Below are positions 5,712 to 25,907 of a stretch of DNA of 52,428 nucleotides, in pieces. The translations under genes were made by a program, and so were the position numbers. The stretch lies in the NCBI RefSeq assembly GCF_027604915.1, contig NZ_JAJAQC010000053.1, positions 1 to 52,428 on the forward strand, read 5' to 3'. How positions within the stretch are numbered: the first letter of the stretch is position 1; every line of letters starts with the position of its first letter. Source of the DNA: Streptomonospora mangrovi (GTDB lineage Bacteria; Actinomycetota; Actinomycetes; Streptosporangiales; Streptosporangiaceae). The notes under the pieces were generated by a model, which made no database searches, was not told the origin of the DNA, and was given only the letters and a program-made list of their open reading frames with translations.

Positions 5712-6806
5712 GTGAGTCTGTCTATAGGGATCGTCGGCCTGCCCAACGTCGGCAAGTCCACGCTGTTCAACGCACTGACCAAGAACGACGCTCTGGCCGC
5801 GAACTACCCGTTCGCCACCATCGAGCCCAACGTGGGCGTCGTGGGGGTGCCCGACTCCCGCCTGGACAAGCTCGCCGAGATGTTCCAGTCGGCCAAGGTG
5901 GTCCCGGCCACCGTCGACTTCGTCGACATCGCCGGGATCGTGCGCGGCGCCTCCGAGGGCGAGGGCCTGGGCAACCAGTTCCTGGCCAACATCCGCGAGT
6001 GCGACGCCATCTGCCAGGTCATCCGGGTCTTCAACGACCCCGACGTCACCCACGTCGACGGCGACATCGAGCCCTCGCGCGACATCGAGACCATCAACAC
6101 CGAGCTGATCCTGGCCGACCTCCAGACCCTCGACAAGGCGCTGCCGCGCCTGGAGCGCGACGCCAAGCGCAACGCCAAGGACAAGACCGCCCAGGAGGTC
6201 CTGGCCGCCGCGCGGGCGGCGCGCGGCGTGCTGGACGAGGGCGTGGGGCTGTCGGTGGGCGCCGCGCCGGCCGGGATCGACACCGCGCTGCTGCGCGAGC
6301 TGAACCTGCTGACCGTCAAGCCCTTCATCTACGTCTTCAACGTCGACACCGACGAACTGGGCGACCCCGGCCTGCGCGCCAAGCTGTCGGAGCTGGTCGC
6401 CCCCTCCGAGGCGATCTTCCTCGACGCCAAGATCGAGTCGGAGCTGGCTGAGCTGGACGAGTCCGAAGCGGCCGAGCTGCTGGAGTCGCTGGGCCAGACC
6501 GAGTCCGGCCTCGCCCAGCTCGCCCGCGTGGGCTTCGCGACGCTGGGCCTCCAGACCTTCCTCACGGCCGGCCCCAAGGAGTCGCGCGCCTGGACCATCA
6601 AGAAGGGCGCCACCGCCCCCGAGGCGGCCGGGGCCATCCACACCGACTTCCAGCGCGGGTTCATCAAGGCCGAGGTGGTCTCCTACGACGACCTGGTCGA
6701 GGCGGGCTCGATGCAGGCGGTGAAGGCGGCGGGCAAGGCCCGCATGGAGGGCAAGGACTACGTGATGGCCGACGGCGACGTGGTGGAGTTCCGGTTCAAC
6801 GTGTAG
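5712..6806 (+). CDS. ychF: redox-regulated ATPase YchF (OLA1 family)
   Basis: The 364-residue protein is full length for the YchF/Ola1 family, P-loop NTPases of the Obg superfamily that bind ribosomes and prefer ATP. The P-loop [11 protein letters not shown] is at residues 6-16, [13 protein letters not shown] supplies G3, and NVDTDE replaces the usual NKxD, in keeping with relaxed nucleotide specificity. A coiled-coil helical domain lies at about 125-200. The C-terminal TGS domain includes [22 protein letters not shown] and ends [16 protein letters not shown]. The GTG start agrees with family alignments and with the -10 box 8 nt upstream. The gene is monocistronic and ends in a very strong hairpin. 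Confidence 0.97.
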
Positions 6807-11891: not shown

Positions 11892-12351
11892 CACGTGTGA
11901 GACCGGGCGGGGGAGTGCGCGGGGGCGCTCCGCGACGCCCCGCCGTGCGCCCGCCCGGGGTCGCGTGGGCCGCGGCGGGTGGAATGTCACACCCGGGACC
12001 TATGGTGAGGATCGGCCACCGGGTGTGGTGCCGCCACCGGCCGGCGCGACCTCTCTAGAGACCTAAACGCCACACCCGCCTTCCTGAACGGCGCTAGCTT
12101 CCTTTCCGGTCCAACCGCAATCCCGGCGTTGACCATGGCAGTTTCCTGAGTTTTGCTGGTATTGCCCCGATGTGCCCCAATCGCCCCTCGATCTTGAGCT
12201 GCGTCCGGGGTGCACCGTGTGCATGGACACGAAACACGGAGGAGTATTGGCGCTCGGGATCCGAAACAATGGCGCACCATAGGTATGGGGTAGACATGGT
12301 TCGGGAAAACGGCCGCCAGGGCCAGTGCTCGGGACGGGATGGGGAGGCGTG
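11892..12351. other. intergenic region before the secretion operon
   Basis: About 460 bp without a convincing gene. It contains an inverted repeat CACACCCGG/CCGGGTGTG (11988-11996, 12019-12027) that may be the tetR terminator, a perfect palindrome TCTCTAGAGA (12052-12061), and a -35-like TTGACC (12129-12134) without a good -10 at normal spacing. The stretch 12060-12300 is clearly less G+C-rich than its surroundings, as expected for a promoter region. The operon promoter probably lies here, but I cannot place it. A 60-codon open frame ending at 12352 lacks a ribosome site. Confidence 0.45.
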
Positions 12352-13323
12352 ATGGCTCGCAAGCCGACCGCGCGGCGCGGCGGCCGACCCGCTGAGGACT
12401 CCGCCGACGCGGACCTCTACGAGTTCGGCGACCCTCCGCAGCGCAGCCGGCGGCTCCGCGCCGGCTCGGGCGGGCGCTGGTGGGTGTGGATCGGGCGCGC
12501 CGTGCTGTGGGCGTTCATCATCGTCGTCATCTTCAACGGCGTCTGGCAGCCGCTGCGCAACGGGTTCGCCCAGCCCTCCGCCGACGAGGAACCCGCCGCC
12601 GAGCAGCCCGCCTTCCCCGAGACCGCCGCCGCCGGGTTCGCCCTGCGCTTCGCCGACGTCTACCTCAACACCGGCGGCCTCGCGGGCCAGGAGCGCGCCG
12701 AGGCGCTGGCCGCCTACGTCCCCGAGGGCCGCGCCACCGAGTTCACCGTCGAGGACTCCGAGTTGACCGGCGAGAACCTTGGCGTGGTGGGGGTCGACGT
12801 CCGCGACGACCACAACGCCGTCGTCACCCTGAGCGCCGACGTCAACGGCGCCCCCATGAGCCTGGACGTCCCCGTCTACGCCGCCGACTCCGACAGCCTT
12901 GTGATCTCCGGGCCGCCCGCCCTGCTCGCCAGCCCGAGCCGGGCCGACCTCCCCGCGCCCGAGTCCGCCGAGACCGACACCGCCGTCCGCGACGAACTGG
13001 TGCCGCGCCTGGAGCGGTTCTTCGCGGCCTACGCCGAGGACCCCGGCTTCCTGTCCGACTTCGTGGAGCCCGGCGCCCGGATCGAGCAGTTGCCGCCCGA
13101 CACCCTGGAATTCGCCGAACTGTCCGATATCGCCGTACCCGTCGACGGTTCGGGGGATGATGATGGACGACAGGTCACGGCCACCGTGGTGTGGCGGCTG
13201 GCCGGTTCCGACGAGTCCACCCCCGCCGAGCTGACCCAGACCTATGAGCTGACCGTCGTCCGCGACGGCGAGACCTGGTATGTCCGAGACATCCAAGGAG
13301 CCCCGCAGTCGTTCGGCGAGTGA
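12352..13323 (+). CDS. TcpC-family conjugal transfer protein (VirB8-like)
   Basis: The 323-residue protein starts after GGGGAGG. It has a basic, probably disordered cytoplasmic N-terminus of about 38 residues, one membrane helix (WVWIGRAVLWAFIIVVIFNGVW, about 40-61), and two extracytoplasmic NTF2-like domains. These lie at about 85-185 (FALRFADVYLNTG to VPVYAADSDSLVI) and about 215-323 (LERFFAAYAED to ETWYVRDIQGAPQSFGE). This is the layout of TcpC of pCW3 and ConB/Orf13 of ICEBs1/Tn916, VirB8-like assembly factors of the Gram-positive type IV channel. It is the first gene of the operon. Confidence 0.82.
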   Translation: MARKPTARRGGRPAEDSADADLYEFGDPPQRSRRLRAGSGGRWWVWIGRAVLWAFIIVVIFNGVWQPLRNGFAQPSADEEPAAEQPAFPETAAAGFALRFADVYLNTGGLAGQERAEALAAYVPEGRATEFTVEDSELTGENLGVVGVDVRDDHNAVVTLSADVNGAPMSLDVPVYAADSDSLVISGPPALLASPSRADLPAPESAETDTAVRDELVPRLERFFAAYAEDPGFLSDFVEPGARIEQLPPDTLEFAELSDIAVPVDGSGDDDGRQVTATVVWRLAGSDESTPAELTQTYELTVVRDGETWYVRDIQGAPQSFGE

Positions 13324-13370: not shown

Positions 13371-13409
13371 ATGCAGCACAGATGTGAGACGCGAGGGGAC
13401 GGCGACTGA
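13371..13409 (+). CDS. possible 12-residue leader peptide
   Basis: ATG at 13371 is preceded by a strong AAGGAG and opens a 12-codon frame encoding MQHRCETRGDGD. Its TGA overlaps the ATG of the following gene (TGATG at 13407-13411). The strong ribosome site and exact overlap suggest translational coupling, with the short peptide guiding ribosomes to the small membrane protein. The alternative is that the AAGGAG is incidental and the weaker GAGGGGA is used directly. No homology can be claimed for so short a peptide. Confidence 0.35.
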   Translation: MQHRCETRGDGD

Positions 13410-13714
13410 TGCTCCCCCTGCTCTCCAGTCTCACGCACGCGGCTCTGGACGTCGCGGCCCCTCTCGCGCTGGCGGCCACCGAGGACGCCCCCGACACCTC
13501 GGGGCTCGCCGACTTCCTGCGTGGCTTCTTCGGGCCGCTGTTCCTGGTGATCGTGTCGGTCGTCGCGATCTTCTTCCTGTTCACCAGGGAGATCACCCGG
13601 TTCGCGCAATTCATCATCCTGGCGATCTTCATCGGGATCGTCTTCTACGTGCCCGGGATCATCGAGGTCACCGCCGTGGCCATCGCGCGAGCAATGGGCG
13701 TCTCGACCGAGTAG
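13409..13714 (+). CDS. small two-helix membrane protein of the secretion operon
   Basis: The 101-residue protein has an N-terminal hydrophobic stretch ending in an Ala-rich region (LALAATEDAPD), which may be a signal sequence. Two strong helices follow: FFGPLFLVIVSVVAIFFLF (about 41-59) and FAQFIILAIFIGIVFYVPGI (about 66-85). Position and shape match the small membrane subunit between TcpC and TcpE in Tn916-like systems, and loosely VirB2/TrbC-type proteins. I do not recognise a specific family. It is followed after 12 nt by the giant TcpE-like gene. Confidence 0.7.
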   Translation: MLPLLSSLTHAALDVAAPLALAATEDAPDTSGLADFLRGFFGPLFLVIVSVVAIFFLFTREITRFAQFIILAIFIGIVFYVPGIIEVTAVAIARAMGVSTE

Positions 13715-13726
13715 GAGGCCGGAGAC

Positions 13727-16700
13727 GTGGACCTGCCCACGTACACCAACATCTGGCGTATCGAGAAAAGGCTGTACAAGCTCTACGATTTCCGGCTGCC
13801 GCAGCCGGTCTCGGTCGTCTACCTTGGTGTTCTCCTGGGCGTGTTCGCCGTCTGGCTGACTCTGATGGTGCTGCTCGGCGTCCCCGCCGAGACCCCCTGG
13901 CACGTCGTGTGGCTGGTGCCGCCCTTCGTCATCGCCTTCCTGGCCACCAGGCCGGTGATCGAGGGCAAGCGCCTCAGCGAACTCGTCGTCTCCCAGGTCC
14001 GCTACGTCACCGAGGCCCGGGTCTACACCCGGCTGGCGCCCGAGCGCGAGCCGGGTGAGGTCCGTGTCACCGTCCGGGTGTGGCACCGCGACCCCGCGGC
14101 GGGGCCGCTGCCCGCACCCGGCAAGCGCGCGGCGCGTTCGGCCGCCCAGGCGGCCGAACGCGGGCGCGCACGCCGCCGCGACCGCGCCGCCGAGGCGCCC
14201 GTGTCCACCCCCGCGCCCCGGCGCACCGCCCGCCAGGCGCCGTCGCTGGAGGAGGTGCTGCCCGCGTCGCCCAACGGCAGCGGCGCGCGGGCGCACGCCG
14301 GTTCGGGACCGGCCGACCTCCCCGACCCCGCGCCGCTGTGGAACGGCGAGCAGGCCGCCGCGTCCGGCCCTCGTGAGGACTACGAGAAGCACGAGGAATA
14401 CGAGAAGTACGACGAGGCCGCCAACTGGCGGGCCGCCGACCCCTACGTCCCGGCCGAACCCCCGCCCTCGGTGCGCGAGCGGGTCGCCGAGCGTGAGGCG
14501 GCGTTCGGTGGCGGTGCCGAGCGCGAGCCGTGGGAGTGGGAGCCCGCGGAGCCGCGCGCGGCCGGCGCCGGCCGGCGGGACCGGGTCGAGCACGCCGACG
14601 GCCTCGACGAGGACGACCTTCGCGACGACGACCTCCGCGAGGCGGAGCGTGAGGCGGCGTTCGATGGCGGTGCCGAGCGCGAGCCGTGGGAGTGGGAGCC
14701 CGCAAAGCCGCACGCGGCCGGCGCCGGCCGGCGGGACCGGGTCGAGCACGCCGACGGCCTCGACGAGGACCGCCTCCGCGAAGCGGAGTTCTGGTCCGAG
14801 CGCCGCAACGGCTTCCGCCCCGAGCGCGCCGCCGGCGCCGAGGCCGCCCCGGCACGCGGCCGCCGCGCCGAGACCGAACCGGAACCCGAGCCCGAAGCGT
14901 TCGCCGCCGCGGCCGAGCCCTGGCCGCTGCCCGAGGCCGACGACGACTTCCCGGCCCGCGAGCGCGAATCCCTCGACCAGCGGCGGGAGTGGGAGCGCGA
15001 CTACGACCGCGACCGCGACCGCGACCGCGCCGCGCCCCGGCGCGGCATGGGCAAGAAGGTCCTCAACTACTTCGGCTTCGCCCTGGACAAGCCGGCCGCC
15101 GGCTCCGCCGCCGACCGCGCCCGGCGCGACCCCGGCGCCGGCCGCGGGCACCGCCCGGCGCGCGGACACACCGGTCCCATTCCCGGCGCCGCCCGCACCC
15201 CGGCCGAACTCGCCGCGCACCTCGCCGACTACACCGACGAGCGGTCCCCCGACCACGGCGTCCGGCCGGACCAGGCGGACCGGACGGGCTCCGAGCCCGC
15301 GACCGGCCACACGGACCGGCTGGAGACCGAGCCCGCCGCCGACCACACCGACCGGCCGGACCCCGCCTCCGCCACCGGCTACGCCGTGCCCGAGCGCGCG
15401 CCGCAGCGCGTCGAGGACCAGGCCACGCCGCTCTTCGCCCCCGCCGACCCCGGCGCCGAGTCCGCCGCGCCGGCCGAACCCGCGCCCGACCGGGGCACCA
15501 CCGCGCGCCGCCGCGCCGAGGAGATGATGGCGGCGCCGCCCACCCCCGCCGAGGCCCCGCGCGGCCGCGGCACCGACCCCGCCGCGCGCCCGTTGGCCGA
15601 CGCCGGCGAGCCGGAGGCGGCCGAACCCCGGCGGTCCCGCGACCCCGATGCCGCGGACGCCCGTCAGCCGTCACGCCACCCCGAAGCCGCGGACGCCTCC
15701 CAACCGTCCCGCGCCGAGGACGCCGACACGCGTTCCGGTGCGTTCGGCCGCGCCCGCCCGTGGGAGCGCCGGGAGCGGCCCGCCGCCACCGGTTCCGCCC
15801 GCGACCGCGCCGCCGGCGACGACACCGCGTCCGCCGCCGACCGCCCCGGCCCGCAGCGCCGCCTGCGCGGCCGTATCCAGGGCGTCCTGGTCACGCGCCG
15901 CCTCGAACGCGAACGCGACGCCGCCGAAACCGCGTCGGGAGTTGAGCAGGCCCCCGCCGAGCACGACACCGAGCGCGCCCGCGAACGCGCGCGGGCCGCA
16001 GAGCCGCCGCCGCGCGCCAAGGCTCAGGGGCTCGGCGCCCCCGAGTCCGCCGACGCCACCGAAACCCCCGGGCCCGCTGAGACCGGCCGCCCGTCGCTGC
16101 GCGCCCGCCGCCTCCAACAGCGTCCGCACGCCGCACCGTGGGACCTCCCCACCCCGCTCGACAGCGCCGCCGCCGAGCAGCGTGCCCAGCAGGAGGGGGC
16201 GCCCGCCGAGCGCCCGGCACCGGAGGCGGAACGCGCCCAGGAGGACCGTGAGCAGGGTGCCCCCGCCGAGCCGGGCGAGGCGAAGCCGCACCTCCAACTC
16301 GACCACGGCACGGGCGAGCACGAGAGCCTGTCCGAGGTCATCCGGGTGTTCTCGGCGCCGCCGGGCACCGCCGGAGCCGTCGACCAGCCTGCGGTCCGAG
16401 ACGACGAGGACGCTGCTGCGGAACGGGAGCCGGAGGCCGCCACCGAGGTCGAGGCCGAGGTCACCGCGCCGGACACCTATGCCGAGGACGCCCAGCCCCC
16501 CGCCGCCCGCGCCGCCGCCGAGGCCGCGGCCGAGCCCGAGGACGACACCAAGCCCCCGCTGCAACTGGACCACGGCACGGGCGAGCACGAGAGCCTGTCC
16601 GAGGTCACCCGCGCCCTGTCGACGGGAACCGGCGAACCGGAACGCCAGGGTTCCGCCGCCCTCCCGGTCCAGGACGACCGGGAGGAGTCCGCCCGCCCGA

Positions 16701-19700
16701 TCCGGGGCGGCCGGGACGAGGCCGCCGAGGAGGCGGCCGCCGAGGCACGCGCCGCGCGCGGCGACACCGCGCAGGCGCGGCCTGAGGGCAAGCCGCCGCT
16801 CCAGTTGGACCACGGCACGGGCGAGCACGAGAGCCTGTCCGAGGTCACCCGCGCCGTGGCGGCGCCCGAGGACCGAACCCGCCCGGCCCGCGCAACGGAC
16901 CCGGACGCCACCCGGCCGCCGTCGCCCGACACCGCGCCCGCACCGGACCGCGCGCGGCCGGAGAATCCCGCCGCCGCCGACCGCGCGCGAGGCGGCGAGG
17001 TGCCCGAGGCCGGCGGGGAGCAGCCCTCGCCCGCGGAGTCGGGTGCGGCCGGTCTCCGCATCCCCGACCTCTCGGCCCCCAAGCCCGCGCTGCAACTGGA
17101 CCACGGCACCGGCGAGCATGAAAGCCTCTCCGATGTCGCCAACGCCGCAGCGACCACGCCCCCGCACGGAGACCGCCCAGCGGAGCGCCCCACCCGCGCC
17201 GCGCGCCGCCCGTCGGGCGCCCGGCGCGCCGAGGAGTCGGCCGCCGGATCGGGTACTGAGGCGGCTCTGGACACGCCAGCAGAGGCGTCGCGCGACGCCT
17301 CTGACGTGGAGACGCCTTTCCACGGCGACGGCGGCGCGGACCGCCGCGCCGCAACGGTGCGTCAGTCGGGTCCTGAGACTGCTGCGGACACGTCGGCCGA
17401 GGCGCCGCGTGGCACCTCTGACGTGGAGGCGCACCCCTCCGGAACGCGCGCGGATGAGCGCGCCAACGAGGGCCGCTCGTCGGGTGCGCGGCGCGCCGCC
17501 TCGGCTGTGCCTCCGGCGGGCGACACCGCTGATGCCGACGTCCCTGACAGCGCTCCTGACTCCTCCGCCGACGTGGACACCACGGGCGCGGCGCCCGATC
17601 CGGTCAGCCCGTCCCCCGGAGGTGTTTCGGACGACGACGGGCCGGAGGCGGCCACGGCCGTCCCGCCGCAGGACGACACCCGGGGCGGATCCGGCTCGGA
17701 GGCCCCGCGCGAGCACCACGACGAACCGCGCGACCGCGCCGCCTCCGACCGGCTGGAGGTGCTGGACCGCTACCTGAACCACGCCGACACCCCGCCGCCG
17801 CCCCCGCCGCGCTTCGCGGAGGCGACCGGGAGCCAGCCGCCGCGTCGGCCGGTCTCGTGGTTCGCCGACACCCCCGTTCCCGCCCCCGCCGATCGGGGTC
17901 CGTCCGCCTCCCGGGCGGCGGAGTCGGCGGGAGTCGAGAGCGCGCCGGGCTCGGCGTCCGACGACGACCCCCGCCGGGTGCCCGATGAGCGGCACGGCTC
18001 CGGCCGGAACGCCGCCCGCGATGCGGCCGGCCACGGCGGCGCCCACGGACCGGCCCGCACACCGCGCGCGGCGGAGCACACCGATCGTGCCGACGACACC
18101 ACGTCGGTGGACGACCCCGCCATGGAGACCGGGCACGCCGCGCGCGCCGGTGGCGTGCCGGAACCCGGCCCGGCCGAGGATTCGCTTGACTCCCGGCCGC
18201 ACGGCGACCGGCACGAACCCGCCTCCACCGCCCACGGCGCCGCGCCGGCCCACCCGGACGCCGACCGCGCCGCCTCGACCGACGCGCCCGCCTCCGCCGA
18301 CGCCGCCTCCGGCGGCGCGGCGGTCCGCCAGGCTCCCCGCGACCAGGGCGGCGACCTCGCGAACGCCGGGCGCGCCGCAGAGAGCCCGGCCGACCGCGCC
18401 GGACACGGCGCCGAGTCCGCTCCGGCTTCAGCCTCGGCCTCGGCCAAGCCGCCCCTCGAACTCGACCACGGCACCGGCGAGCACGAGTCGTTCGGACACG
18501 TCAACGCGCCGCAGCGCACCACGGCCGCCGACCTCGAAGCCGCCGAGGCCGCGGCCATCCGCGCCCGCCGCCGCGACCTCGCCCACAACACCGGCTCCTC
18601 CGGCCAGGGCGACACCGCCGACCCCGGCGGCGACAGCGCCTCGGCCCAGCGGCAGGCCGACCCCGCCACGGGGGGCGAGCGCTCCATGCGCCTGGCCCGC
18701 ACCATCCGGGCCAACCCCACCGGCGGGCAGCCGTCCGCCGCCCCCGGCCGCACCGCCGACCCCGCCGCCCCTCGCGACTCCCGCGACTCCGCCGCGCGCG
18801 ACCCCGAGACCACCGACCCCGACGCACCCGGCGCACCCCCGGCATCCCCGACGCGCGGGGGCCGCACCCGCACCCCCGCCACGGGCGACGACAACGTCTT
18901 CAGCCGCGTCGCGCAGAACGCCCGCCGCCTCAGCCACCTCTTCGGCCAGACCCCGCCGGGCACCCCCCCGGAGTCCGCGCCGGCCGAGGGCGGGCGCGGC
19001 CGGGGCGACACCCGCACCCGGTCCGGCGCCGACACCCCGGCCGCCGGCGCCACCGGCACCGCGCCCGGCGCGCCCGCCGACTCCCACGCCGACAAGCCGT
19101 CACTCCAGCTCGACCACGGCACCGGCGAGCAGCAGCGGCTCGGCGACACCCCCAACGGCACCCCGTCCCACGCCCAGCCCGCGCGAGGCGGCGGCGCCGG
19201 ACGCCCGGCGGCGGATTCCGACTCCGGCGCCACGCGCGGGTGGCGGCGACTGGCGCGGGTCGTCACCGGCGGCTCCACGCCGGCGGCCCGCTCCGACCTC
19301 CCGCCCGGCGACATCGAGCGCCTGCGCACCGCCCTGCCCGCCCCCCGCACCGTCGTGGTCCTGGGCTGCACCGGCGGCGCTGGCCAGACCGTCACCACCC
19401 TCATGCTGGGCCACACCCTCGCGGCCTACCGCGACGAGCGCGTGGTGGCCGTCGACGTCAACCCCGGCGGCGGCGGGCTGTCGCGGCGCGTCCGCGCCGA
19501 GACCCCCGAGACCCTCACCTCGCTGCTGGCCAACGCCGAGGCCGTCAACGGCTACCTGGGCATGCGCCGCTACACCTCCCAATCGCCCAGCGGCCTGGAG
19601 GTGGTGTCCACGCTGGACGACCCCTACGTCCAGACCCTCGACGACCGCGACTACGCCGGGCTGGCCGGCCTGCTGGAGCAGTTCTACGAGGTCGCGCTGC

Positions 19701-20140
19701 TGGACCCCGCCGCCACCGGGGTGGCGCGCGCTCTGCCGGTGGCCGACGGCATGGTCCTGGTGGCTCCGGCCAGCGAGGATGCCGCCCGCGCCGTGGCCAT
19801 GACCTTCGAATGGCTCGACGGGCACGGCTACGCCGCCCTGCGGTCCAAGGCCGTGGTCGTCATCAACGGGGTCAGCAAGCGCAGCCTCGCCGACGTCGAC
19901 GCCGCCGAGCAGGTGGCGCGCGGGCGCTGCCGGGCGATCGTGCGCGTCCCGTGGGACGACCACCTGGCGGCCGGCAAGGTCGTCGACACCGGCGCGCTGC
20001 GGGCCACCACGCGGCGCGCGCACGCGGCCCTCGGCGGGGTGCTGATGCACGGCCTGGCGGCCGTGCCCGGCCCCGGCGCCGGGCCGGGCGCGCCCGGCGG
20101 CGGCCAGGGCCCCCGGCGGGCGCCGGAGGCCCGCCGATGA
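13727..20140 (+). CDS. giant TcpE-like / disordered repeat / ParA-like fusion protein
   Basis: A single uninterrupted 2137-codon frame starts at GTG 8 nt after AGGAGG. Residues 1-125 resemble TcpE/ConD conjugation proteins: IEKRLYKLYDFRLPQPVS, then two membrane helices (VVYLGVLLGVFAVWLTLMVL and WHVVWLVPPFVIAFLAT), then an arginine-rich strand region. Residues about 130-1860 are Ala/Pro/Glu/Asp/Arg/Gly-rich and probably disordered. They contain a duplicated 42-residue block and six copies of KPxLQLDHGTGEHESLSEV. Residues about 1865-2110 form a MinD/ParA-like domain (VVVLGCTGGAGQT, VVAVDVNPGGGGLSRRV, VALLDPAATGV, VVVINGVSKRS), with Thr1882 and Gln1887 where the P-loop lysines should be. I know of no described protein with this architecture. 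It lies in the operon between the small membrane protein and VirB4, so it is presumably a membrane-tethered scaffold of the machine. Confidence 0.8.
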   Translation: MDLPTYTNIWRIEKRLYKLYDFRLPQPVSVVYLGVLLGVFAVWLTLMVLLGVPAETPWHVVWLVPPFVIAFLATRPVIEGKRLSELVVSQVRYVTEARVYTRLAPEREPGEVRVTVRVWHRDPAAGPLPAPGKRAARSAAQAAERGRARRRDRAAEAPVSTPAPRRTARQAPSLEEVLPASPNGSGARAHAGSGPADLPDPAPLWNGEQAAASGPREDYEKHEEYEKYDEAANWRAADPYVPAEPPPSVRERVAEREAAFGGGAEREPWEWEPAEPRAAGAGRRDRVEHADGLDEDDLRDDDLREAEREAAFDGGAEREPWEWEPAKPHAAGAGRRDRVEHADGLDEDRLREAEFWSERRNGFRPERAAGAEAAPARGRRAETEPEPEPEAFAAAAEPWPLPEADDDFPARERESLDQRREWERDYDRDRDRDRAAPRRGMGKKVLNYFGFALDKPAAGSAADRARRDPGAGRGHRPARGHTGPIPGAARTPAELAAHLADYTDERSPDHGVRPDQADRTGSEPATGHTDRLETEPAADHTDRPDPASATGYAVPERAPQRVEDQATPLFAPADPGAESAAPAEPAPDRGTTARRRAEEMMAAPPTPAEAPRGRGTDPAARPLADAGEPEAAEPRRSRDPDAADARQPSRHPEAADASQPSRAEDADTRSGAFGRARPWERRERPAATGSARDRAAGDDTASAADRPGPQRRLRGRIQGVLVTRRLERERDAAETASGVEQAPAEHDTERARERARAAEPPPRAKAQGLGAPESADATETPGPAETGRPSLRARRLQQRPHAAPWDLPTPLDSAAAEQRAQQEGAPAERPAPEAERAQEDREQGAPAEPGEAKPHLQLDHGTGEHESLSEVIRVFSAPPGTAGAVDQPAVRDDEDAAAEREPEAATEVEAEVTAPDTYAEDAQPPAARAAAEAAAEPEDDTKPPLQLDHGTGEHESLSEVTRALSTGTGEPERQGSAALPVQDDREESARPIRGGRDEAAEEAAAEARAARGDTAQARPEGKPPLQLDHGTGEHESLSEVTRAVAAPEDRTRPARATDPDATRPPSPDTAPAPDRARPENPAAADRARGGEVPEAGGEQPSPAESGAAGLRIPDLSAPKPALQLDHGTGEHESLSDVANAAATTPPHGDRPAERPTRAARRPSGARRAEESAAGSGTEAALDTPAEASRDASDVETPFHGDGGADRRAATVRQSGPETAADTSAEAPRGTSDVEAHPSGTRADERANEGRSSGARRAASAVPPAGDTADADVPDSAPDSSADVDTTGAAPDPVSPSPGGVSDDDGPEAATAVPPQDDTRGGSGSEAPREHHDEPRDRAASDRLEVLDRYLNHADTPPPPPPRFAEATGSQPPRRPVSWFADTPVPAPADRGPSASRAAESAGVESAPGSASDDDPRRVPDERHGSGRNAARDAAGHGGAHGPARTPRAAEHTDRADDTTSVDDPAMETGHAARAGGVPEPGPAEDSLDSRPHGDRHEPASTAHGAAPAHPDADRAASTDAPASADAASGGAAVRQAPRDQGGDLANAGRAAESPADRAGHGAESAPASASASAKPPLELDHGTGEHESFGHVNAPQRTTAADLEAAEAAAIRARRRDLAHNTGSSGQGDTADPGGDSASAQRQADPATGGERSMRLARTIRANPTGGQPSAAPGRTADPAAPRDSRDSAARDPETTDPDAPGAPPASPTRGGRTRTPATGDDNVFSRVAQNARRLSHLFGQTPPGTPPESAPAEGGRGRGDTRTRSGADTPAAGATGTAPGAPADSHADKPSLQLDHGTGEQQRLGDTPNGTPSHAQPARGGGAGRPAADSDSGATRGWRRLARVVTGGSTPAARSDLPPGDIERLRTALPAPRTVVVLGCTGGAGQTVTTLMLGHTLAAYRDERVVAVDVNPGGGGLSRRVRAETPETLTSLLANAEAVNGYLGMRRYTSQSPSGLEVVSTLDDPYVQTLDDRDYAGLAGLLEQFYEVALLDPAATGVARALPVADGMVLVAPASEDAARAVAMTFEWLDGHGYAALRSKAVVVINGVSKRSLADVDAAEQVARGRCRAIVRVPWDDHLAAGKVVDTGALRATTRRAHAALGGVLMHGLAAVPGPGAGPGAPGGGQGPRRAPEARR
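14489..14770 (+). repeat. tandem duplication inside the giant gene
   Basis: Two near-identical 126-bp blocks (14489-14614 and 14645-14770) recur with a 156-bp period, preserving the frame. Each encodes a 42-residue unit with AEREPWEWEPA and RRDRVEHADGLDED. The blocks differ at only a few residues (GG/DG, E/K, R/H), which points to a recent duplication. Confidence 0.9.
16283..19150 (+). repeat. six dispersed copies of the KPxLQLDHGTGEHESLSEV motif
   Basis: Copies begin at residues 853, 942, 1022, 1119, 1574 and 1790 of the giant protein (nt 16283, 16550, 16790, 17081, 18446, 19094), each 57 bp long. Copies 1-3 share 40 identical nucleotides from the Asp codon onward, and copies 2 and 3 agree further. 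Copy 4 has SDV for SEV. Copy 5 has LELDHGTGEHESFGHV and copy 6 LQLDHGTGEQQRLGDT. The LDHGTGE core is invariant at protein level, while the sequence between copies is unrelated and low in complexity. Confidence 0.92.
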
Positions 20141-20256
20141 CCCCTCGCACCCCCACGGCCGGGGGCCGGCCCGCGGCCGCGGTGTCCGCGCGGCGGCCCC
20201 CGCACCGCACACCCCACCACGCCGCACACGACAGCATCCGGGAGGCCACTCGATGA
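20137..20256 (+). CDS. 39-residue ORF bridging the giant gene and virB4
   Basis: ATG at 20137 overlaps the TGA of the giant gene (ATGA). GGAGG lies 7 nt upstream. The frame ends in a TGA (20254-20256) that overlaps the ATG of virB4 (20253), again as ATGA. The Arg/Pro/His-rich product (MTPRTPTAGGRPAAA... ending SIREATR) has no recognised domain. The overlap at both ends and the good ribosome site argue for a real coupled cistron. The alternative is that it only carries ribosomes across the 112-bp gap. Confidence 0.45.
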   Translation: MTPRTPTAGGRPAAAVSARRPPHRTPHHAAHDSIREATR

Positions 20257-22763
20257 TCGGCAGCAGAGGCGGAACCCGCCTTTCGGTCCGCTACTTCGAC
20301 GACCGCATCCTGCTCAGCGAAGCCGACGCCTGGGCGTACTTCCGGCTGCCGACGGTCTCCTACGAGTTCGCCACGCCGGAGGAGCGCGAGGCGCTCGCCA
20401 CCAACATCACCATCGCGCTGGCCGCCATCCGGATGAACGACGCCGAGGTCCACCTGCGCGTGGCCCACCGCACCTACCCGGCGGCGGAGTGGGCCACCCG
20501 GCTCGACGGCACCTCCGACTCCGGGCCGGGGTGGTACGACTACCTCGACGAGATGTACCGGCACGTCTGGGCCAAGGACTTCTGGACCAAGGAGGTCTAC
20601 CTGGGAGTCCGGCTGGGCCTGCGCGGCGGGGTGCGCGGCCAGTTGTCGCAGAGCGTGTTCGCCCAGTTCCTGTCGGCCTACCAGCGCGGCGAGCAGATCC
20701 TGGGCATGGAGGACGACGCGATCGACCCCAAGGAGATCGCCCGCTGGACCGACCAGGCCGAACGCCTGGGCCGGGCGCTGGCCGCCAGCTCCCTGCACGC
20801 CCGCCACGCCACCTCCGACGAGATCGCCTGGCTGGTGCGCCACGCGGTCACCGGCACCATCGAGGAGGACCGCCGCTCGGCGGCGGGCCGGCGCACCTGG
20901 GGCCGGGGCGAGATCGAGCAGTTGGTCGAGGGCGTGATCCACAACGGGCGGTCGCTGCTGCGGCTGGACCAGCCCACCGGATCCACCTACATCGCGCACC
21001 TGTCGTTCTCGCGGTTCCCCGACCTCATGCCGTTCCCCGACGGCGAGCCGTGGCTACACTACGCCGACGCGCTGCCGTTCCCCGTCGAGATCTCGCTGCG
21101 GCTGAAGTTGATCCCGCCGGCCAAGGCCAGCAAGGACGTCGGGCGCAAGCTCGCCCACGCCCGCGACATGGACGCCCACATCCGCGAGGCGGGGGTGCCC
21201 GCGCCCATCGCGCTCGCCGAGCAGATCGACGCCGCGCGCATGCTCGAGCACGGCATCACCAAGGAGCGGCTGCCGTTCGTGTACGGCTGGCACCGGCTGA
21301 TGGTGTCGGCGCCCACCGAGGACCTGCTGGTGCAGCGGGTGGAGGCGGTGGTGGAGCACTACCGCGACATCGGCATCGACGTCGTCAACTCCACCGGCGA
21401 CCAGTTCGCGCTGTTCTCGGAGTCGCTGCCGGGCGACCGGATCCGGCTCAACGCCTACGCCCAGCGCCAGCCGCTGCGCACCATCGCCGGGGGCATGCCC
21501 ACGGCCACCATCGACCTCGGCGACCGCCGCGACTCCAGCGGCGCCGGCTGGACCGGCCCCTACATCGGCGAGACCCTGGGACGGGCGCGCTCCATCGTGC
21601 ACTTCGACCCGATGGTGGCGGCGGCCCGCAACCGGCCCACCGCGATCGCGATCACCGGCGAACCCGGCGGCGGCAAGACCACGCTGGCGCTGCTGCTGAT
21701 CTACCAGTTGGCGCTGCGCGGGGTCACCGTGGCGGCCATCGACCCCAAGGGCGACGCGGAGTCGCTGGTCCGACTGCTGCAACGGCGCGGCCGCAAGGCG
21801 AGGATCATGTCGATGGCCTCGGCCGAGCCCGGACTGCTCGACCCGTTCTCCTTCGGCGACGACCTCTCCACCCAGAAGACCATGGCCACCGAGACCCTGC
21901 GGCTGCTGCTGCCCCGCATGAGCGAGGAGCGGGAGTCGGCCATGATCCAGGCGGTGGCGGCGGTGGCCAACCAGCCGCGGCCCAGCCTGGCCAAGGTCGT
22001 CGCCTATCTGGAGGACTCCGACGACGCGGCGTCGCGCAACCTGGGGGCGGTGCTGCGCTCGATGTCGGAGATGCGGCTGGCGGGGCTGTGCTTCGACCCC
22101 CAGGGCCAGACCCAGATCGACACGGAGGGCTGGACCACCGTGTTCACGCTGGGCGGGCTCACCCTGCCCGACTCCACCATCCAGCGCGACGACTACTCCT
22201 ACGAGCAGCGGCTGAGCGTCGCCCTGCTCTACCTGGTGAGCCAGTTCGCGCGGCGGCTGATGAACGGCATCGACCGCCACCTGCCCAAGGCCATCTTCCT
22301 CGACGAGGCGTGGGCGGTGACCTCCACCCCGGAGGGCGCCAAGCTCGTGCCGGAGGTGTCGCGGATGGGCCGCTCGCGCAACACCGCCCTCATCCTGGTC
22401 AGCCAGAACGCCGGTGACCTCCTCAACGAGCAGGTCACCAACTGCCTCTCCAGCGTGTTCGCGTTCCGCTCCAGTGAGCGGTTCGAGGTGGAGAGCGTGA
22501 TGGCGCTGCTGGGAGTCGACCCGTCCGAGGAGCACCAGGCGATGCTCCGCAACCTCGGCAACGGCGAGTGCATCTTCCGAGACCTCGACGGCCGCGCGGG
22601 GCGCATCGCCGTCGACCTGGTGTCCGAGGAGCTACTGGCGTGGCTGGACACCAACCCCACCCGGCAACGACCCGAGACCGCCGAAGACGACACCGCCGGC
22701 CCCGGCGCCCTCGTTGGCACGGGCAGCGCGGGAGGCACCACGAGGACGGGGCACCACCAGTGA
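20253..22763 (+). CDS. VirB4-family conjugation ATPase (TcpF/ConE-like)
   Basis: The 836-residue ATPase powers assembly or transport in type IV secretion. The N-terminal VirB4 domain (about 1-400) includes SVRYFDDRILLSEADAWAYFRLP and EISLRLKLIPPAKA. The C-terminal RecA-like domain has Walker A TGEPGGGKTTLAL with Lys475, IDPKGDAESLVRLLQRRGRKAR, Walker B AIFLDEAWAV with Asp684-Glu685, and SQNAGDLLNEQVTNCLSSVFAFR. All key ATPase residues are intact, unlike the upstream ParA-like domain. GGGAGG precedes the ATG. Its 3' end overlaps the next gene by 4 nt (GTGA), so it is cotranscribed. Confidence 0.93.
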   Translation: MIGSRGGTRLSVRYFDDRILLSEADAWAYFRLPTVSYEFATPEEREALATNITIALAAIRMNDAEVHLRVAHRTYPAAEWATRLDGTSDSGPGWYDYLDEMYRHVWAKDFWTKEVYLGVRLGLRGGVRGQLSQSVFAQFLSAYQRGEQILGMEDDAIDPKEIARWTDQAERLGRALAASSLHARHATSDEIAWLVRHAVTGTIEEDRRSAAGRRTWGRGEIEQLVEGVIHNGRSLLRLDQPTGSTYIAHLSFSRFPDLMPFPDGEPWLHYADALPFPVEISLRLKLIPPAKASKDVGRKLAHARDMDAHIREAGVPAPIALAEQIDAARMLEHGITKERLPFVYGWHRLMVSAPTEDLLVQRVEAVVEHYRDIGIDVVNSTGDQFALFSESLPGDRIRLNAYAQRQPLRTIAGGMPTATIDLGDRRDSSGAGWTGPYIGETLGRARSIVHFDPMVAAARNRPTAIAITGEPGGGKTTLALLLIYQLALRGVTVAAIDPKGDAESLVRLLQRRGRKARIMSMASAEPGLLDPFSFGDDLSTQKTMATETLRLLLPRMSEERESAMIQAVAAVANQPRPSLAKVVAYLEDSDDAASRNLGAVLRSMSEMRLAGLCFDPQGQTQIDTEGWTTVFTLGGLTLPDSTIQRDDYSYEQRLSVALLYLVSQFARRLMNGIDRHLPKAIFLDEAWAVTSTPEGAKLVPEVSRMGRSRNTALILVSQNAGDLLNEQVTNCLSSVFAFRSSERFEVESVMALLGVDPSEEHQAMLRNLGNGECIFRDLDGRAGRIAVDLVSEELLAWLDTNPTRQRPETAEDDTAGPGALVGTGSAGGTTRTGHHQ

Positions 22764-25165
22764 CGTTCACGCATCCCACCGGCGCGCCCGCGGACACCCC
22801 CACCCCGCCGCCCGCCGCCCGCCCGCGCCGACGCCGCCTCACCCGCGGCCTCGTCATGACCCTGCTCATGGCGGCCTTCCTGCTGACCCCCCTCAGCAGC
22901 GCCCAAGCCGCCCCCGTGTGCGAGGGAGAACCGGCCCCCCAACCCGAGGCCGCCGGCAGCGGAGCCGACGGCCTCCTGGTGCCGCCGCAGGCGGCCGACA
23001 CCGCCGCCGAGTCGCCTGACGGCCTGCCCCCCGACTCCAGCCTGTATGGGCAGTACGGCACGGCCGGCCAGCAGTGGCACGTCATCCGCGAGTCCTGCGT
23101 CGACAAGATGGGCTCCGCCGCCGTCGCCACGCTGAGCAACACGGCCTGGGACCTGTCGAAGACCATCAACCAGTCGACCATCACGGTGTACCAGGCGGCG
23201 CTCTCCGACGAACTGCTGGAAAGCTTCAACCGCATGGTGGCCGACATCGTCACGCAGTTGCGCGAGGGTGTCTGGCGACCCCTGCTGCCGACCGTCATCA
23301 TCCTGGGCGCCGTGTGGCTGGGCTGGTACGGCCTGGTCCGCAAGCGCGTGACCCTCACGCTCGAAAGCGCCGCGTGGATGGTGGTCGCCACCGCGCTGGG
23401 CATCTGGATCCTGGTCAACCCGATGCAGATCCTGGGGTACGCGGGCACCATCGTGAACTCCGGCAGCCAGTTGGTGAACAGTTCCATCTCGCGGGTCACC
23501 CCGCCCGGTGCCGCCCAGACCTGCCCTCGTGGCGCCGAGGAGGTCCAGAAGGCCGAGTGGGAAAGCCAGAACGACTTCGCGATCCGGAAGAACTCGCAGA
23601 TGCTGTGGTCCGGGCTGGTCTGCCAGCCGTGGATCGCCGGGGAATTCGGCTCGGTGGCCGGCTCCAACACCGCCGAGCGCGAGCACGGGCTCGCGCTGCT
23701 CCAGGCCCAGGGGTTCAGCCGGGTGGAGCAGCAGCAGATCCTCGACGGTGACGTGGACGCGGCCGAACTCGCCCAGGAGAAGCAGAACCAGTACGAGCAG
23801 ATCGCCTCGGAGATCGAGTCGAACTATCCGCAGATCTACCCGTTGTTCGAAGGCGAGCAGCAGGGCAGCCGACTCGGTGTCGCGACGCTCGCCCTGTTCG
23901 CCTCGATCTTCGCGGGCGGGCTCATCCTCGCCGGCTCGGTCGCGCTGATCGTGCTCAAGATCGGCTTCCTCCTGCTCCTCCTCTTCTCACCGGTGTTCCT
24001 GCTGATCGGTATCCATCCGGGGTACGGGCGCACGGTACTGCTGCGCTGGTTCGAGATGCTGCTCGGGCTGCTGCTCAAGCAGGTGTTCATCGTGCTGCTG
24101 ATCTCCGTGCTGGTGCTGTGCTACGGCATGATCATCGGCTCCTCCCTCGGGTGGGGCCTGCAAATGATCCTGCTGGCCCTGTTCACCCTGGCCCTGTTCG
24201 TGTACCGCAAGCCGTTCGCGCACCTGTTCCAGTCCGTCAACGCCAACACGTTCACCTCGCGGATGGTCAGCGACGCCGTCTCCAGCAACGCCCTGAGCGC
24301 GAGCGCGAACATCCTGCCGCCGGTGGCCTACATGCGGGCGCAGAAGTGGGGTCTCAACCGGGCTCCGCAACTGGCGGCCGCCGCGGCCGCCGTTCCGGCA
24401 GCGGGTGCGGCGGGCGGTGCCCTCGGCGCCGAGTCGGGTGACACCGTCCGAGGCGGCGCGGCCGTGGCAGGCGACACGGCCGACGGCGACGGCGGCCGGG
24501 TGCGCGGGGAAGCCGGGCGGGCGCGAGGCACCGTGGGCTACGGCCGGGTACGCGGAAACGCGGCGCCGCCGCCGCTGCCGCTGCGTGAACGGGCGCAGGG
24601 CGAGCCGAACCGCTCGCAGCCGAAGGTCTCCACCGGTCGCAGTTCCGACGAGGCGCCGCGCCTCAGCGCGGCGGCCTCCGGCGGGCTGGCCGGTTCCCGG
24701 TCGGCGGGCGGCGGTGGCGGCTCGATTCCGCCCCGTCCCTCAGGCGGCTACACCGGCACCGGCGACACCGGCTGGGCCTCGGTCTTCGGTACCGGTTCGG
24801 GCAGCGGGCAGCGTGCCGCGGCCGCTCCCCGCAGCAACGGCGATGCCGCCGAACCGACCGAGAGGCCCGCTCCCAGCAGCGGTCAGGGCATCTTCCGCGG
24901 GCGTTCAGCCACACCCGCGCAGGGCAGCGCGGCCCGCGGTTCCCGCTGGGGCGGCCCGCGCGAGCGCCAGGGCCGTGCGGCGCCCCCGCCGCGAGCCCAG
25001 CGCCCGGCGCCCAGTGCGGAGCGCCGGGACGGCGACAACTGGATCACCGGATCCGGCCGCCGGAACAACGACGCGCCCATCGCTCCCTTCTGGACGGGGT
25101 CGGAGAACCTGCGCCGCCGCGAGACCCGCCGCGACGTCCCCTTCTGGCTCCGTGACGAAGACTGA
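22760..25165 (+). CDS. VirB6/TrbL-like polytopic membrane protein (TcpH/ConG-like)
   Basis: The 801-residue protein begins at a GTG overlapping the virB4 stop; an ATG at 22857 is an alternative start. It has a signal-like sequence (GLVMTLLMAAFLLTPLSSAQA, about 32-52) and an extracytoplasmic N-terminal region. About six membrane helices follow at roughly 174-194, 205-225, 372-418 (two) and 433-484 (two), the last with FEMLLGLLLKQVFIVLLISVLVL. After VYRKPFAHLFQSVNA comes a Gly/Ser/Arg/Pro-rich tail of nearly 300 residues, predicted disordered and probably cytoplasmic. Position and topology match the inner-membrane channel component VirB6. The long tail parallels the disordered linker of the giant protein. 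Confidence 0.82.
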   Translation: MTFTHPTGAPADTPTPPPAARPRRRRLTRGLVMTLLMAAFLLTPLSSAQAAPVCEGEPAPQPEAAGSGADGLLVPPQAADTAAESPDGLPPDSSLYGQYGTAGQQWHVIRESCVDKMGSAAVATLSNTAWDLSKTINQSTITVYQAALSDELLESFNRMVADIVTQLREGVWRPLLPTVIILGAVWLGWYGLVRKRVTLTLESAAWMVVATALGIWILVNPMQILGYAGTIVNSGSQLVNSSISRVTPPGAAQTCPRGAEEVQKAEWESQNDFAIRKNSQMLWSGLVCQPWIAGEFGSVAGSNTAEREHGLALLQAQGFSRVEQQQILDGDVDAAELAQEKQNQYEQIASEIESNYPQIYPLFEGEQQGSRLGVATLALFASIFAGGLILAGSVALIVLKIGFLLLLLFSPVFLLIGIHPGYGRTVLLRWFEMLLGLLLKQVFIVLLISVLVLCYGMIIGSSLGWGLQMILLALFTLALFVYRKPFAHLFQSVNANTFTSRMVSDAVSSNALSASANILPPVAYMRAQKWGLNRAPQLAAAAAAVPAAGAAGGALGAESGDTVRGGAAVAGDTADGDGGRVRGEAGRARGTVGYGRVRGNAAPPPLPLRERAQGEPNRSQPKVSTGRSSDEAPRLSAAASGGLAGSRSAGGGGGSIPPRPSGGYTGTGDTGWASVFGTGSGSGQRAAAAPRSNGDAAEPTERPAPSSGQGIFRGRSATPAQGSAARGSRWGGPRERQGRAAPPPRAQRPAPSAERRDGDNWITGSGRRNNDAPIAPFWTGSENLRRRETRRDVPFWLRDED

Positions 25166-25253: not shown

Positions 25254-25907
25254 ATGCCCAAGTCGCTTTCCGAAGGTCAGCAGCGGTTGGTTTTCGGTGC
25301 GCTTGTCGTTGCCCTCGTCGCCTGCGGGATCTACCTGAGCGTGGCCGGGATCCCGGGCGGCGGCTCCGACTCCGCGACCGACCCGAACGGGTCCACCGGC
25401 GCGGAGCGGGGCCAGGACACCGACCAGCCCGCCGCGGTCGCGCCGAGCCCGATTCCCGCCACGGCCGCCGAGGACATGCGGGTACTCGACTGGTTCCCCT
25501 TCACAGAGGACGAGTTCAAGGCGGCCGCCGCCACCGCGCAGGGATTCGCCGAGGCGTACGGGACCATCGACTACTCCGAGTCCCCCGAAGCCTATTTCCA
25601 GTCGATGGAGGAGTTGGCGACCGAGGAGTACGCGCAGACTCTCGCGCAGAGTTCGGGCGCGGGGGCGCACTGGCAGGAGATGCGGGAGCAGGAGGCGGTC
25701 GCGGAGGGCCGCGCCAACGTCGAGTCCGTGCGCAGCTTCGACGACCGGTCGATCGTCTTCGTGCTGACCGTCCAGTCCATCACCGAGGGAGAGGGCGGCG
25801 CCACAGAAGACCTCGGTGAGTACTCCGTGACGGTCATGGAGGACGGCGGCGAATGGCGGGTGTTCGACTTCCAGCCGGCCGACGCCGGAAACCTCGGAGA
25901 CCGCTGA
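25254..25907 (+). CDS. membrane-anchored NTF2-like protein of the secretion operon
   Basis: The 217-residue protein has one N-terminal helix (LVFGALVVALVACGIYLSVAG, about 11-31), a Ser/Thr/Pro/Asp-rich spacer to about 75, and a compact domain. That domain begins EFKAAAATAQGFAEAYGTIDYSESPEAYFQSM and ends GEYSVTVMEDGGEWRVFDFQPAD. The helix-then-sheet pattern with a terminal WRVFDFQ strand suggests an NTF2/VirB8-like fold, which would make it a second VirB8-type subunit beside the TcpC protein. I do not recognise the exact family. The ribosome site is weak. Its TGA overlaps the ATG of the following cell-wall hydrolase. Confidence 0.65.
   Translation: MPKSLSEGQQRLVFGALVVALVACGIYLSVAGIPGGGSDSATDPNGSTGAERGQDTDQPAAVAPSPIPATAAEDMRVLDWFPFTEDEFKAAAATAQGFAEAYGTIDYSESPEAYFQSMEELATEEYAQTLAQSSGAGAHWQEMREQEAVAEGRANVESVRSFDDRSIVFVLTVQSITEGEGGATEDLGEYSVTVMEDGGEWRVFDFQPADAGNLGDR

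What the first reader, a model, noticed from the sequence alone, without database searches (positions are those of the whole stretch)
13727..20140. TcpE-like membrane domain fused through a 1700-residue disordered linker to a ParA/MinD-like domain
The sequence shows one uninterrupted 2137-codon frame inside a type IV secretion-like operon. Its N-terminus looks like the small TcpE/ConD subunit, normally about 120-170 residues. Its C-terminus is a ParA-like domain, usually a separate protein. I know of no described protein with this layout. It could be a membrane-tethered scaffold that gathers partners over tens of nanometres of flexible chain (inference).
Basis: partly seen in the sequence, partly recalled or inferred. 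Interest (0 to 1): 0.9.

Follow-up and report, generated by a model that had tools for sequence, protein, structure and literature searches.

The report
Secretion-machine subunit tethered to pseudo-MinD
A small membrane part of a bacterial conjugation-like secretion machine is joined by a very long flexible chain to a MinD-like domain that has lost its ATP-splitting lysine, and this odd fusion sits at a conserved chromosomal place across an order of filamentous actinobacteria.

Summary
Confirmed and extended. Window 13727-20140 is one 2,137-codon gene: TcpE (Pfam, above cut-off), about 1,700 mostly disordered residues, and a ParA/MinD fold. It is no oddity of one genome. The TcpE part was found in 194 of 200 genomes sampled from the order. 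Of 33 fetched unnamed or plasmid-record loci 32, and of 80 named loci 62, hold both domains in one frame; fused lengths run from 528 to 2,137, the window's being the longest seen. The gene lies in a conserved operon (TcpC, small protein, fusion, VirB4/TcpF, VirB6-like, NlpC/P60), downstream of ychF in 63 of 74 named loci: a core chromosomal machine, not an obvious mobile element. In all 87 distinct fused C-termini the P-loop lysine is glutamine and the signature lysine is lost, while other pocket residues stay: a pseudo-ATPase. Its relatives are EspI-like MinD proteins, intact and separate on Nocardiopsis plasmids with a split version of the system. The linker has conserved islands and, in one clade, a repeated KPxLxLDHGTGE motif. 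Best reading: a VirB3-type subunit carrying a tethered, non-hydrolysing EspI-like regulatory or recruiting head beside VirB4. Architecture solid; function inferred.

The parts
12325..13323 (+). TcpC (VirB8-like) gene of the operon
   Evidence: PF12642 E 2.9e-12, 47.3 bits over cut-off 27
13409..13714 (+). small protein with hydrophobic stretches (position of TcpD), very conserved
   Evidence: 101 aa; 60-100% identity in the 34 loci compared, window included; no TcpD profile match, only a sub-cut-off LptF_LptG match
13727..20140 (+). the fusion gene: TcpE - disordered linker - pseudo-MinD, 2,137 aa
   Evidence: open frame, codon-position pattern, homologues
13727..14101 (+). TcpE domain, residues 1-125; hydrophobic stretches 28-49 and about 59-73; K+R 5 before, 0 between, 10 after (both ends cytoplasmic by inference)
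14102..19228 (+). disordered linker, residues 126-1834
15053..15088 (+). conserved linker island KKVLNYFGFALD, residues 443-454
15503..15535 (+). conserved linker island ARRRAEEMMAA, residues 593-603
15854..15913 (+). conserved linker islands QRRLRGRIQGV and VTRRLERE, residues 710-729; predicted helix 714-736
16118..16153 (+). conserved linker island QRPHAAPWDLPT, residues 798-809
16283..16345 (+). LDHGTGE motif copy 1
16550..16615 (+). LDHGTGE motif copy 2
16790..16855 (+). LDHGTGE motif copy 3
17081..17143 (+). LDHGTGE motif copy 4
18446..18502 (+). LDHGTGE motif copy 5
18524..18583 (+). predicted helix in the linker, residues 1600-1619, pLDDT 91 and 85 in its two 10-residue blocks
18893..18940 (+). 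predicted helix in the linker, residues 1723-1738, within the conserved island NVFSRVAQNARRLSHLFGQTPPGT
19094..19150 (+). LDHGTGE motif copy 6
19229..19279 (+). conserved GWRRLARVVTGG segment before the MinD domain; partly similar segment in some EspI-like relatives
19313..20053 (+). pseudo-MinD domain, residues 1863-2109
19364..19390 (+). degenerate P-loop GCTGGAGQT, residues 1880-1888; Q1887 where MinD has the P-loop lysine
20253..22763 (+). VirB4/TcpF ATPase
   Evidence: AAA_10 E 2e-66; NF052333 TcpF E 2e-72, 244 bits, below that model's cut-off of 1100
22568..25165 (+). TrbL/VirB6-like membrane protein; the listed frame overlaps VirB4, true start probably near 22760 (by eye)
   Evidence: PF04610 E 6e-5, just under cut-off; CD3337/EF1877 E 2e-28, under cut-off
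25254..25907 (+). conserved operon protein with a hydrophobic N-terminal stretch, no family match
25853..27100 (+). NlpC/P60 cell-wall hydrolase (TcpG/VirB1-like role by inference)
   Evidence: PF00877 E 2e-20
5712..6806 (+). YchF GTPase, the upstream chromosomal anchor shared by most loci
   Evidence: PF06071

Best explanation
A TcpE/VirB3-type inner-membrane subunit of a chromosomally fixed, FA-type type IV secretion system has captured an EspI-like MinD protein. The TcpE hairpin docks beside the VirB4 ATPase, encoded downstream. The long cytoplasmic chain carries short docking motifs and ends in a MinD-fold head that has lost ATP hydrolysis but keeps other residues of the nucleotide pocket. 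The head works as a built-in, stoichiometric regulator or recruiter: it holds a fixed, dimerisable MinD surface at the machine and binds a partner there, most likely either the intact EspI-like MinD ATPase that the same genomes encode elsewhere or the substrate side of VirB4. Shown here: one gene, the domains, the disorder, the conserved islands, the invariant K-to-Q change, one group of fused forms in the tree, a conserved locus, split relatives. Inferred: cytoplasmic topology, contact with VirB4, loss of hydrolysis, the partner, and regulation as the output.
For: TcpE profile, with the gene upstream of VirB4/TcpF as in pCW3-type systems, where TcpE is called most likely the VirB3 homologue and where the VirB3-like PrgI (of pCF10) is modelled to bind its VirB4 one to one (passages of PMC12857230). 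Both domains in one frame in 32 of 33 fetched relatives and 62 of 80 named loci. Q at the P-loop lysine in 87 of 87 distinct C-termini, with the Walker A' Asp, Walker B Asp and NGV Asn also in 87 of 87 (these motif roles are recalled). Fold ParA/MinD. Relatives are EspI-like: one lies between mycP and eccD in an ESX locus. EspI lowers ESX-1 secretion when ATP is low, and its Lys425 is called an essential ATP-binding residue (passages of PMC11302016): a precedent for a MinD-fold regulator of a secretion machine. A separate EspI-like MinD with KGGVGKT is present in 22 of 22 genomes tested (neighbourhood and Pro-rich N-terminus seen in a few). The 21 fused rows of the tree form one group, 100/100 support. 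ychF lies upstream on the same strand in 63 of 74 named loci with at least 9 kb upstream.
Against: No experiment and no complex model: binding to VirB4, to the separate MinD, or of the linker motifs to anything is untested. The K-to-Q change does not prove loss of ATP hydrolysis. L064 keeps TcpE (255 aa) and the T4SS genes without a MinD domain, so the head is dispensable at least once. Length varies fourfold and the LDHGTGE motif was not found in 40 of 87 proteins, so neither is essential to a common mechanism. Frames broken in the linker occur: among 80 named loci 6 closed frames lack MinD in frame, 5 of them with MinD further down in another frame or behind stops; and of 9 short frames that I checked, 6 lie at a contig end and 3 have MinD downstream in another, overlapping frame, one of these in G099 on a 6.8 Mb contig (the other two are the same contigs as L100 and L144 by length). 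These may be sequencing errors, real breaks or split genes. In one relative, G026, a coupling-protein-like match lies about 17 kb downstream of the TcpE start, so the lack of a coupling protein near the locus is not universal.
Confidence: 0.5

Rival explanations
1. Positioning head: the pseudo-MinD domain places the machine in the cell (pole, septum or hyphal tip), as atypical ParA proteins such as TadZ/CpaE do for Tad pili, with the long chain as a reach-extender.
For: ParA/MinD fold with degenerate P-loop; long flexible tether. The TadZ/CpaE comparison is recalled; only listed papers.
Against: No membrane-targeting helix or partner site was tested; the closest sequence relatives found are EspI-like, not TadZ.
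Confidence: 0.2
2. Substrate or DNA recruitment: the head and linker motifs gather DNA or protein substrate for a DNA-transfer or DNA-uptake machine, as partition proteins can aid conjugation.
For: R1 partitioning proteins enhance conjugation (title and abstract start of PMC4949242 in the listing); a VirC1 precedent is recalled. A T4SS without VirD4 can take up DNA (ComB; section 20 of PMC12857230). A coupling-protein-like match lies about 17 kb from the locus in G026.
Against: No relaxase among the 29 window ORFs scanned. Of 22 genomes with the system, 7 have no TrwC and no PF03432 relaxase match and no strong PF12696 match; PF02486 was absent from 9 of 9 tested. FtsK-type couplers and other relaxase families were not tested.
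Confidence: 0.15
3. Non-functional join: the MinD part is a fossil kept by chance and the linker is expanding repeat DNA of a GC-rich genome.
For: Many short tandem repeats in the linker, many indels between close relatives, natural absence in L064, several broken frames.
Against: Head 90-100% identical in amino acids in well-aligned codons within the genus, with changes mostly at third positions (1/0/29 for window against L034); invariant Q, D, D and N in 87 of 87; presence across the order.
Confidence: 0.05
4. Artefact: sequencing or assembly fused two neighbouring genes.
For: The GC-rich repetitive linker is error-prone, as the loci with an overlapping frame break suggest.
Against: Fused in one frame in 32 of 33 and 62 of 80 loci of two partly overlapping sets, complete chromosomes among them.
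Confidence: 0.01

Closest known systems
TcpE family (PF12648), VirB3-like subunits of pCW3, ICEBs1 and ICESt3 systems
   Same: Profile match above cut-off; two hydrophobic stretches; gene upstream of the VirB4/TcpF gene; similar gene set (TcpC, TcpE, TcpF, VirB6-like, NlpC/P60).
EspI and EspI-like MinD/ParA proteins of type VII secretion loci
   Same: Disordered N-terminus followed by a MinD domain; a partly similar GW.. segment before the domain in some; 33-39% identity to the fused head in the 19 listed unfused rows.
   Different: The four relatives aligned keep KGGVGKT; the fused head has CTGGAGQT. EspI is not fused to a T4SS membrane subunit (recalled).
Split T4SS of Nocardiopsis plasmids (NZ_CP074136, NZ_CP099838)
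   Same: TcpC, TcpE (65% and 60% identical), VirB4, TrbL-like, SLT-type enzyme and MinD/ParA in one cluster (profiles run for the first plasmid).
   Different: TcpE and MinD are separate genes on opposite strands; MinD has an intact P-loop.
T4SS lacking VirD4 (Ptl, ComB, Trw)
   Same: Core machine without a coupling protein in the locus (section 20 of PMC12857230).
   Different: Those are Gram-negative systems; that section describes no VirB3-MinD fusion.
TadZ/CpaE atypical ParA proteins (recalled)
   Same: ParA fold with atypical Walker A, tied to a surface machine.
   Different: Different machine, no TcpE, not among the closest sequence relatives found.

Membership tests
TcpE (PF12648) | profile match over the curated cut-off | tested here: met
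   69.7 bits against 29.9; 76.5 bits in the genome search
TcpE (PF12648) | small (about 120-170 aa) stand-alone membrane protein | tested here: not met
   528-2,137 aa, median 1,192, in 95 fused copies
TcpE (PF12648) | two membrane spans, gene next to virB4 | tested here: met
   hydropathy: first span strong, second weaker; VirB4 gene follows. In some Nocardiopsis 2.3-2.9 kb with other ORFs lie between
ParA/MinD (deviant Walker A ATPases) | ParA/MinD fold | tested here: met
   AlphaFold2 and Foldseek, E 8.5e-11 to 3ea0, then FleN, FlhG, Soj, MinD; TM-score by target length 0.62-0.79 in the first 15 rows
ParA/MinD (deviant Walker A ATPases) | signature and P-loop lysines (KGGxGK[TS]) | tested here: not met
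   0 of 87 distinct fused C-termini; Q in 87 of 87 at the P-loop position
ParA/MinD (deviant Walker A ATPases) | CbiA/ParA profile over cut-off | tested here: not met
   19 bits against 25.4
ParA/MinD (deviant Walker A ATPases) | ATP-driven dimerisation and hydrolysis | not testable with these tools
   needs protein
EspI | disordered N-terminus plus MinD domain | tested here: met
EspI | encoded in an ESX/type VII locus, intact Walker A | tested here: not met
   T4SS operon; degenerate Walker A
Gram-positive T4SS (MPF-FA type) | VirB1-, VirB3-, VirB4-, VirB6-, VirB8-like core | tested here: met
   NlpC/P60, TcpE, AAA_10/TcpF, TcpC; the VirB6-like (TrbL) match is just under cut-off
Gram-positive T4SS (MPF-FA type) | VirD4-type coupling protein in the locus | tested here: not met
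   none among 29 window ORFs scanned. Elsewhere PF12696 matches in 16 of 22 genomes, 14 of them strong; among the listed matches only that of G026 is near the locus, about 17 kb from the TcpE start
Integrative conjugative element | relaxase and integrase in the element, variable place | tested here: not met
   no such match among 29 window ORFs scanned (ORFs beyond 43081 were not scanned); ychF upstream in 63 of 74 named loci; TrwC and PF03432 matches of the own genome lie on contig C8, not C48

The most novel reading that the evidence does not exclude
An order of filamentous actinobacteria carries, as a core chromosomal organ, a domesticated non-conjugative type IV secretion machine in which the VirB3 subunit and a pseudo-MinD regulator related to those of type VII secretion are one polypeptide, joined by a motif-bearing disordered tether that may also pair with the cell's intact EspI-like MinD ATPase.
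Probability: 0.45. Interest if true: 0.85.

Novelty: new variant of a known kind. Interest (0 to 1): 0.68.

Why it matters
Nearly all known Gram-positive T4SS functions are DNA transfer (section 22 of PMC12857230), and few T4SS were found in actinobacteria in a 2011 survey (passages of PMC3158045). A T4SS core kept at a conserved chromosomal place across an order, in some genomes without a relaxase detected by three profiles, points to another job. The fusion also links, in one chain, a T4SS membrane subunit and a MinD type otherwise seen with type VII secretion, and gives a natural experiment: intact split MinD on plasmids against a lysine-less fused MinD on chromosomes. It makes the question of what a MinD/EspI part does for a secretion ATPase directly testable in non-pathogenic strains.

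Tried and rejected
Rejected: a lone freak or missed frameshift; an ICE or plasmid insertion (the 'plasmid' record of Nonomuraea gerenzanensis is 11.85 Mb, evidently a chromosome); an ordinary active ParA; a featureless linker. The LDHGTGE motif was looked for elsewhere in the window's genome: 6 of 6 matches lie in this gene. Outside the family little was found: 40 of 394 class genomes match, all 40 in the window's family; of the 354 without a match 20 are shown and 334 are not listed by kinship. In the order sample 6 of 200 have no match: three draft genomes of the window's family and three of one other family; one genome of a second other family (G037) matches. Solved structures related to the TcpE profile: 0; to the MinD profile, weak matches to VpsO, BceF, McdA and MinD. 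Paper searches whose listings showed no description of the fusion or of this system; passages or sections were read in PMC12857230, PMC11302016, PMC3218068, PMC3158045 and PMC10149685 (the last was irrelevant). The TrbL test failed in 24 of 52 loci; in the four of these that I looked at, VirB4 lies 2.3-2.9 kb downstream and the held flank ends soon after it. TcpC, the small protein and VirB4 were in place in 52 of 52. AlphaFold2 of residues 1-760 was poor (mean pLDDT 52.6), so the TcpE fold was not confirmed by structure. Three relatives with a TcpE match (G006, G022, G034) were not among the loci compared; G022 was later found cut by its contig end.
Full report
What is there. The frame 13727-20140 encodes 2,137 residues. 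Residues 5-102 match TcpE at E 3e-19, and this is the only TcpE match in the genome. Residues 1863-2109 have a ParA/MinD fold by AlphaFold2 (pLDDT mostly 84-97) and Foldseek, although sequence profiles see it only weakly. Between them lie about 1,709 residues rich in A, P, R, E, G and D, with pLDDT about 35-50 over most of the parts modelled, residues 126-760 and 1480-1834. Chance does not explain the frame: 0 of 300 simulations reach it, and substitutions follow codon positions.

How widespread. A search with the first 120 residues matched 36 of 60 genomes, the window's own included, and 194 of 200 genomes sampled from the order, one match per genome except G034 with two partial matches. I fetched the loci of 32 of the 35 matching relatives, and one plasmid-record locus: 32 of these 33 hold TcpE and the MinD domain in one frame, the exception being L064. 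Of those six, three have overlapping frames as a single break in the linker would give, two show a gap between the frames, and one lies at a contig end. Nine short frames were checked: six lie at contig ends, three have MinD downstream in another, overlapping frame, one of them on a 6.8 Mb contig. The named loci come from, among others, Nocardiopsis, Streptomonospora, Thermobifida, Actinomadura, Thermomonospora, Actinoallomurus, Planobispora, Planomonospora, Sphaerisporangium and Microtetraspora; the two Thermobifida loci did not show an intact fusion (one runs off its contig, one has a frame break). Two 'same genus' genomes share contig lengths with Streptomonospora alba and Streptomonospora sp. 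PA3, so the window is probably a Streptomonospora. In the class sample 40 of 394 genomes match, all in the window's family.

Where it sits. The operon TcpC - small protein - fusion - VirB4 - TrbL-like - unknown - NlpC/P60 is conserved in order in the 34 loci as far as the contigs reach. TcpC, the small protein and VirB4 are in place in 52 of 52 named fused loci with flanks, though in some Nocardiopsis other ORFs lie between fusion and VirB4. YchF lies upstream on the same strand in 63 of 74 named loci with 9 kb upstream, and XseA or IspH in 40 of 74; a NUDIX gene follows in 12 of 33 fetched loci and in the window, with TypA/BipA in L054 and the window (many loci end before that point). This is best read as a vertically held chromosomal locus. 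No relaxase or coupling protein is among 29 window ORFs scanned. Elsewhere in 22 genomes PF12696 matches in 16 (14 strongly, E below 1e-10) and TrwC in 7; one strong PF12696 match, in G026, lies about 17 kb downstream of that genome's TcpE. Of the 8 genomes with neither a strong PF12696 nor a TrwC match, one (G122) has a PF03432 relaxase match; PF02486 is absent from 9 of 9 tested. So 7 of 22 have the system without any of these; FtsK-type couplers and further relaxase families were not tested.

The pseudo-MinD. Relatives by sequence are 'MinD/ParA family' proteins, several with long disordered N-termini, one of them between mycP and eccD in an ESX locus, which is an EspI-like arrangement (recalled; the role of EspI is from passages of PMC11302016). 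The four that I aligned keep KGGVGKT. In 87 distinct fused C-termini (95 copies) Q stands at the P-loop lysine 87 times and the signature lysine is never present; D1910, D1993 and N2047 are in 87 of 87. Such invariance argues for selection on the altered site, not decay. In a tree of 55 rows the 21 fused rows form one group (100/100) apart from the other MinDs; the root is not known and several long branches meet. Each of 22 genomes also has a separate EspI-like MinD with KGGVGKT; in the window's genome its frame has 1,137 codons with a Pro-rich N-terminus, and in the three genomes whose neighbourhood I read it lies near a seryl-tRNA synthetase-like gene and a short conserved gene (names by eye).

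Split state. Nocardiopsis plasmids NZ_CP074136 and NZ_CP099838 encode TcpC, a 158- or 169-aa TcpE, VirB4, an SLT-type enzyme, a TrbL-like protein (profile just under cut-off, tested on the first only) and an intact MinD protein on the opposite strand of the same cluster (for the second plasmid TcpC and VirB4 rest on its annotation and gene order). So the partnership of a TcpE-type T4SS and an EspI-like MinD exists as separate genes, and in the chromosomal lineage the two are joined and the lysines lost. Which state came first is not shown.

The linker. In 13 loci of the window's clade, islands stay alike while the rest drifts: LNYFGFAL, ARRRAEEMMAA, RRLRGRIQG, RPHAAPWDLP, VFSRVAQNARRLSHLFGQ, GWRRLARVVTGG. 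A motif [KR]PxL[EQ]LDHGTGE[QH] occurs in 47 of 87 distinct proteins by the pattern used, 103 copies in all and up to six in one; the window linker has 6, shuffled window linkers 0.0005 on average. Two islands near the C-terminal side are predicted helices in an otherwise disordered chain.

Reading. By analogy with TcpE as VirB3 (PMC12857230 passages) the hairpin should sit next to VirB4, and the charge pattern puts both ends inside the cell (inference). The chain could reach some tens of nanometres (estimate). I think the head is a locked, non-hydrolysing MinD surface that regulates or recruits at the machine; EspI's ATP-linked control of ESX-1 is the nearest working precedent. What the whole machine exports or imports is unknown.

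Limits. No complex prediction, no experiment; the TcpE structure model is poor; the unnamed and named sets overlap, so the 95 fused copies are not 95 independent genomes.

Noticed in passing
L217:7220-10633 (window's genome, another contig): Separate EspI-like MinD with KGGVGKT and a Pro-rich N-terminus; a counterpart is present in 22 of 22 genomes tested; a possible partner of the fused pseudo-MinD.
   Followed up: partly
L064 (unnamed relative): TcpE protein of 255 aa without a MinD domain, VirB4 directly behind it: a natural loss or absence of the head.
   Followed up: partly
L096, L092, L118, between fusion and VirB4: In some Nocardiopsis two ORFs lie inside the operon: one that looks by eye like an ectoine hydroxylase and one that looks like a secreted HNH-type nuclease; no profile search done.
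   Followed up: no
window 28681-29727 (-) and 29894-32368 (+): A Ser/Thr kinase and a RecD2 helicase follow the operon in the window and in several loci of its genus; they were not found there in most other loci.
   Followed up: no
L100, L108, L144, L226: Overlapping-frame breaks in the linker in four genomes, one of them on a 6.8 Mb contig: errors, real breaks or something else.
   Followed up: partly
L069:20223-22091 and L070:28647-30497: The Nocardiopsis plasmids carry a primase-polymerase-like protein near the split T4SS (LigD_Prim-Pol, under cut-off in the first and over it in the second); MOB-suite calls the plasmids non-mobilizable.
   Followed up: no
plasmid record NZ_LT559118.1: An 11.85 Mb 'plasmid' of Nonomuraea gerenzanensis in the plasmid collection is evidently a chromosome.
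   Followed up: partly
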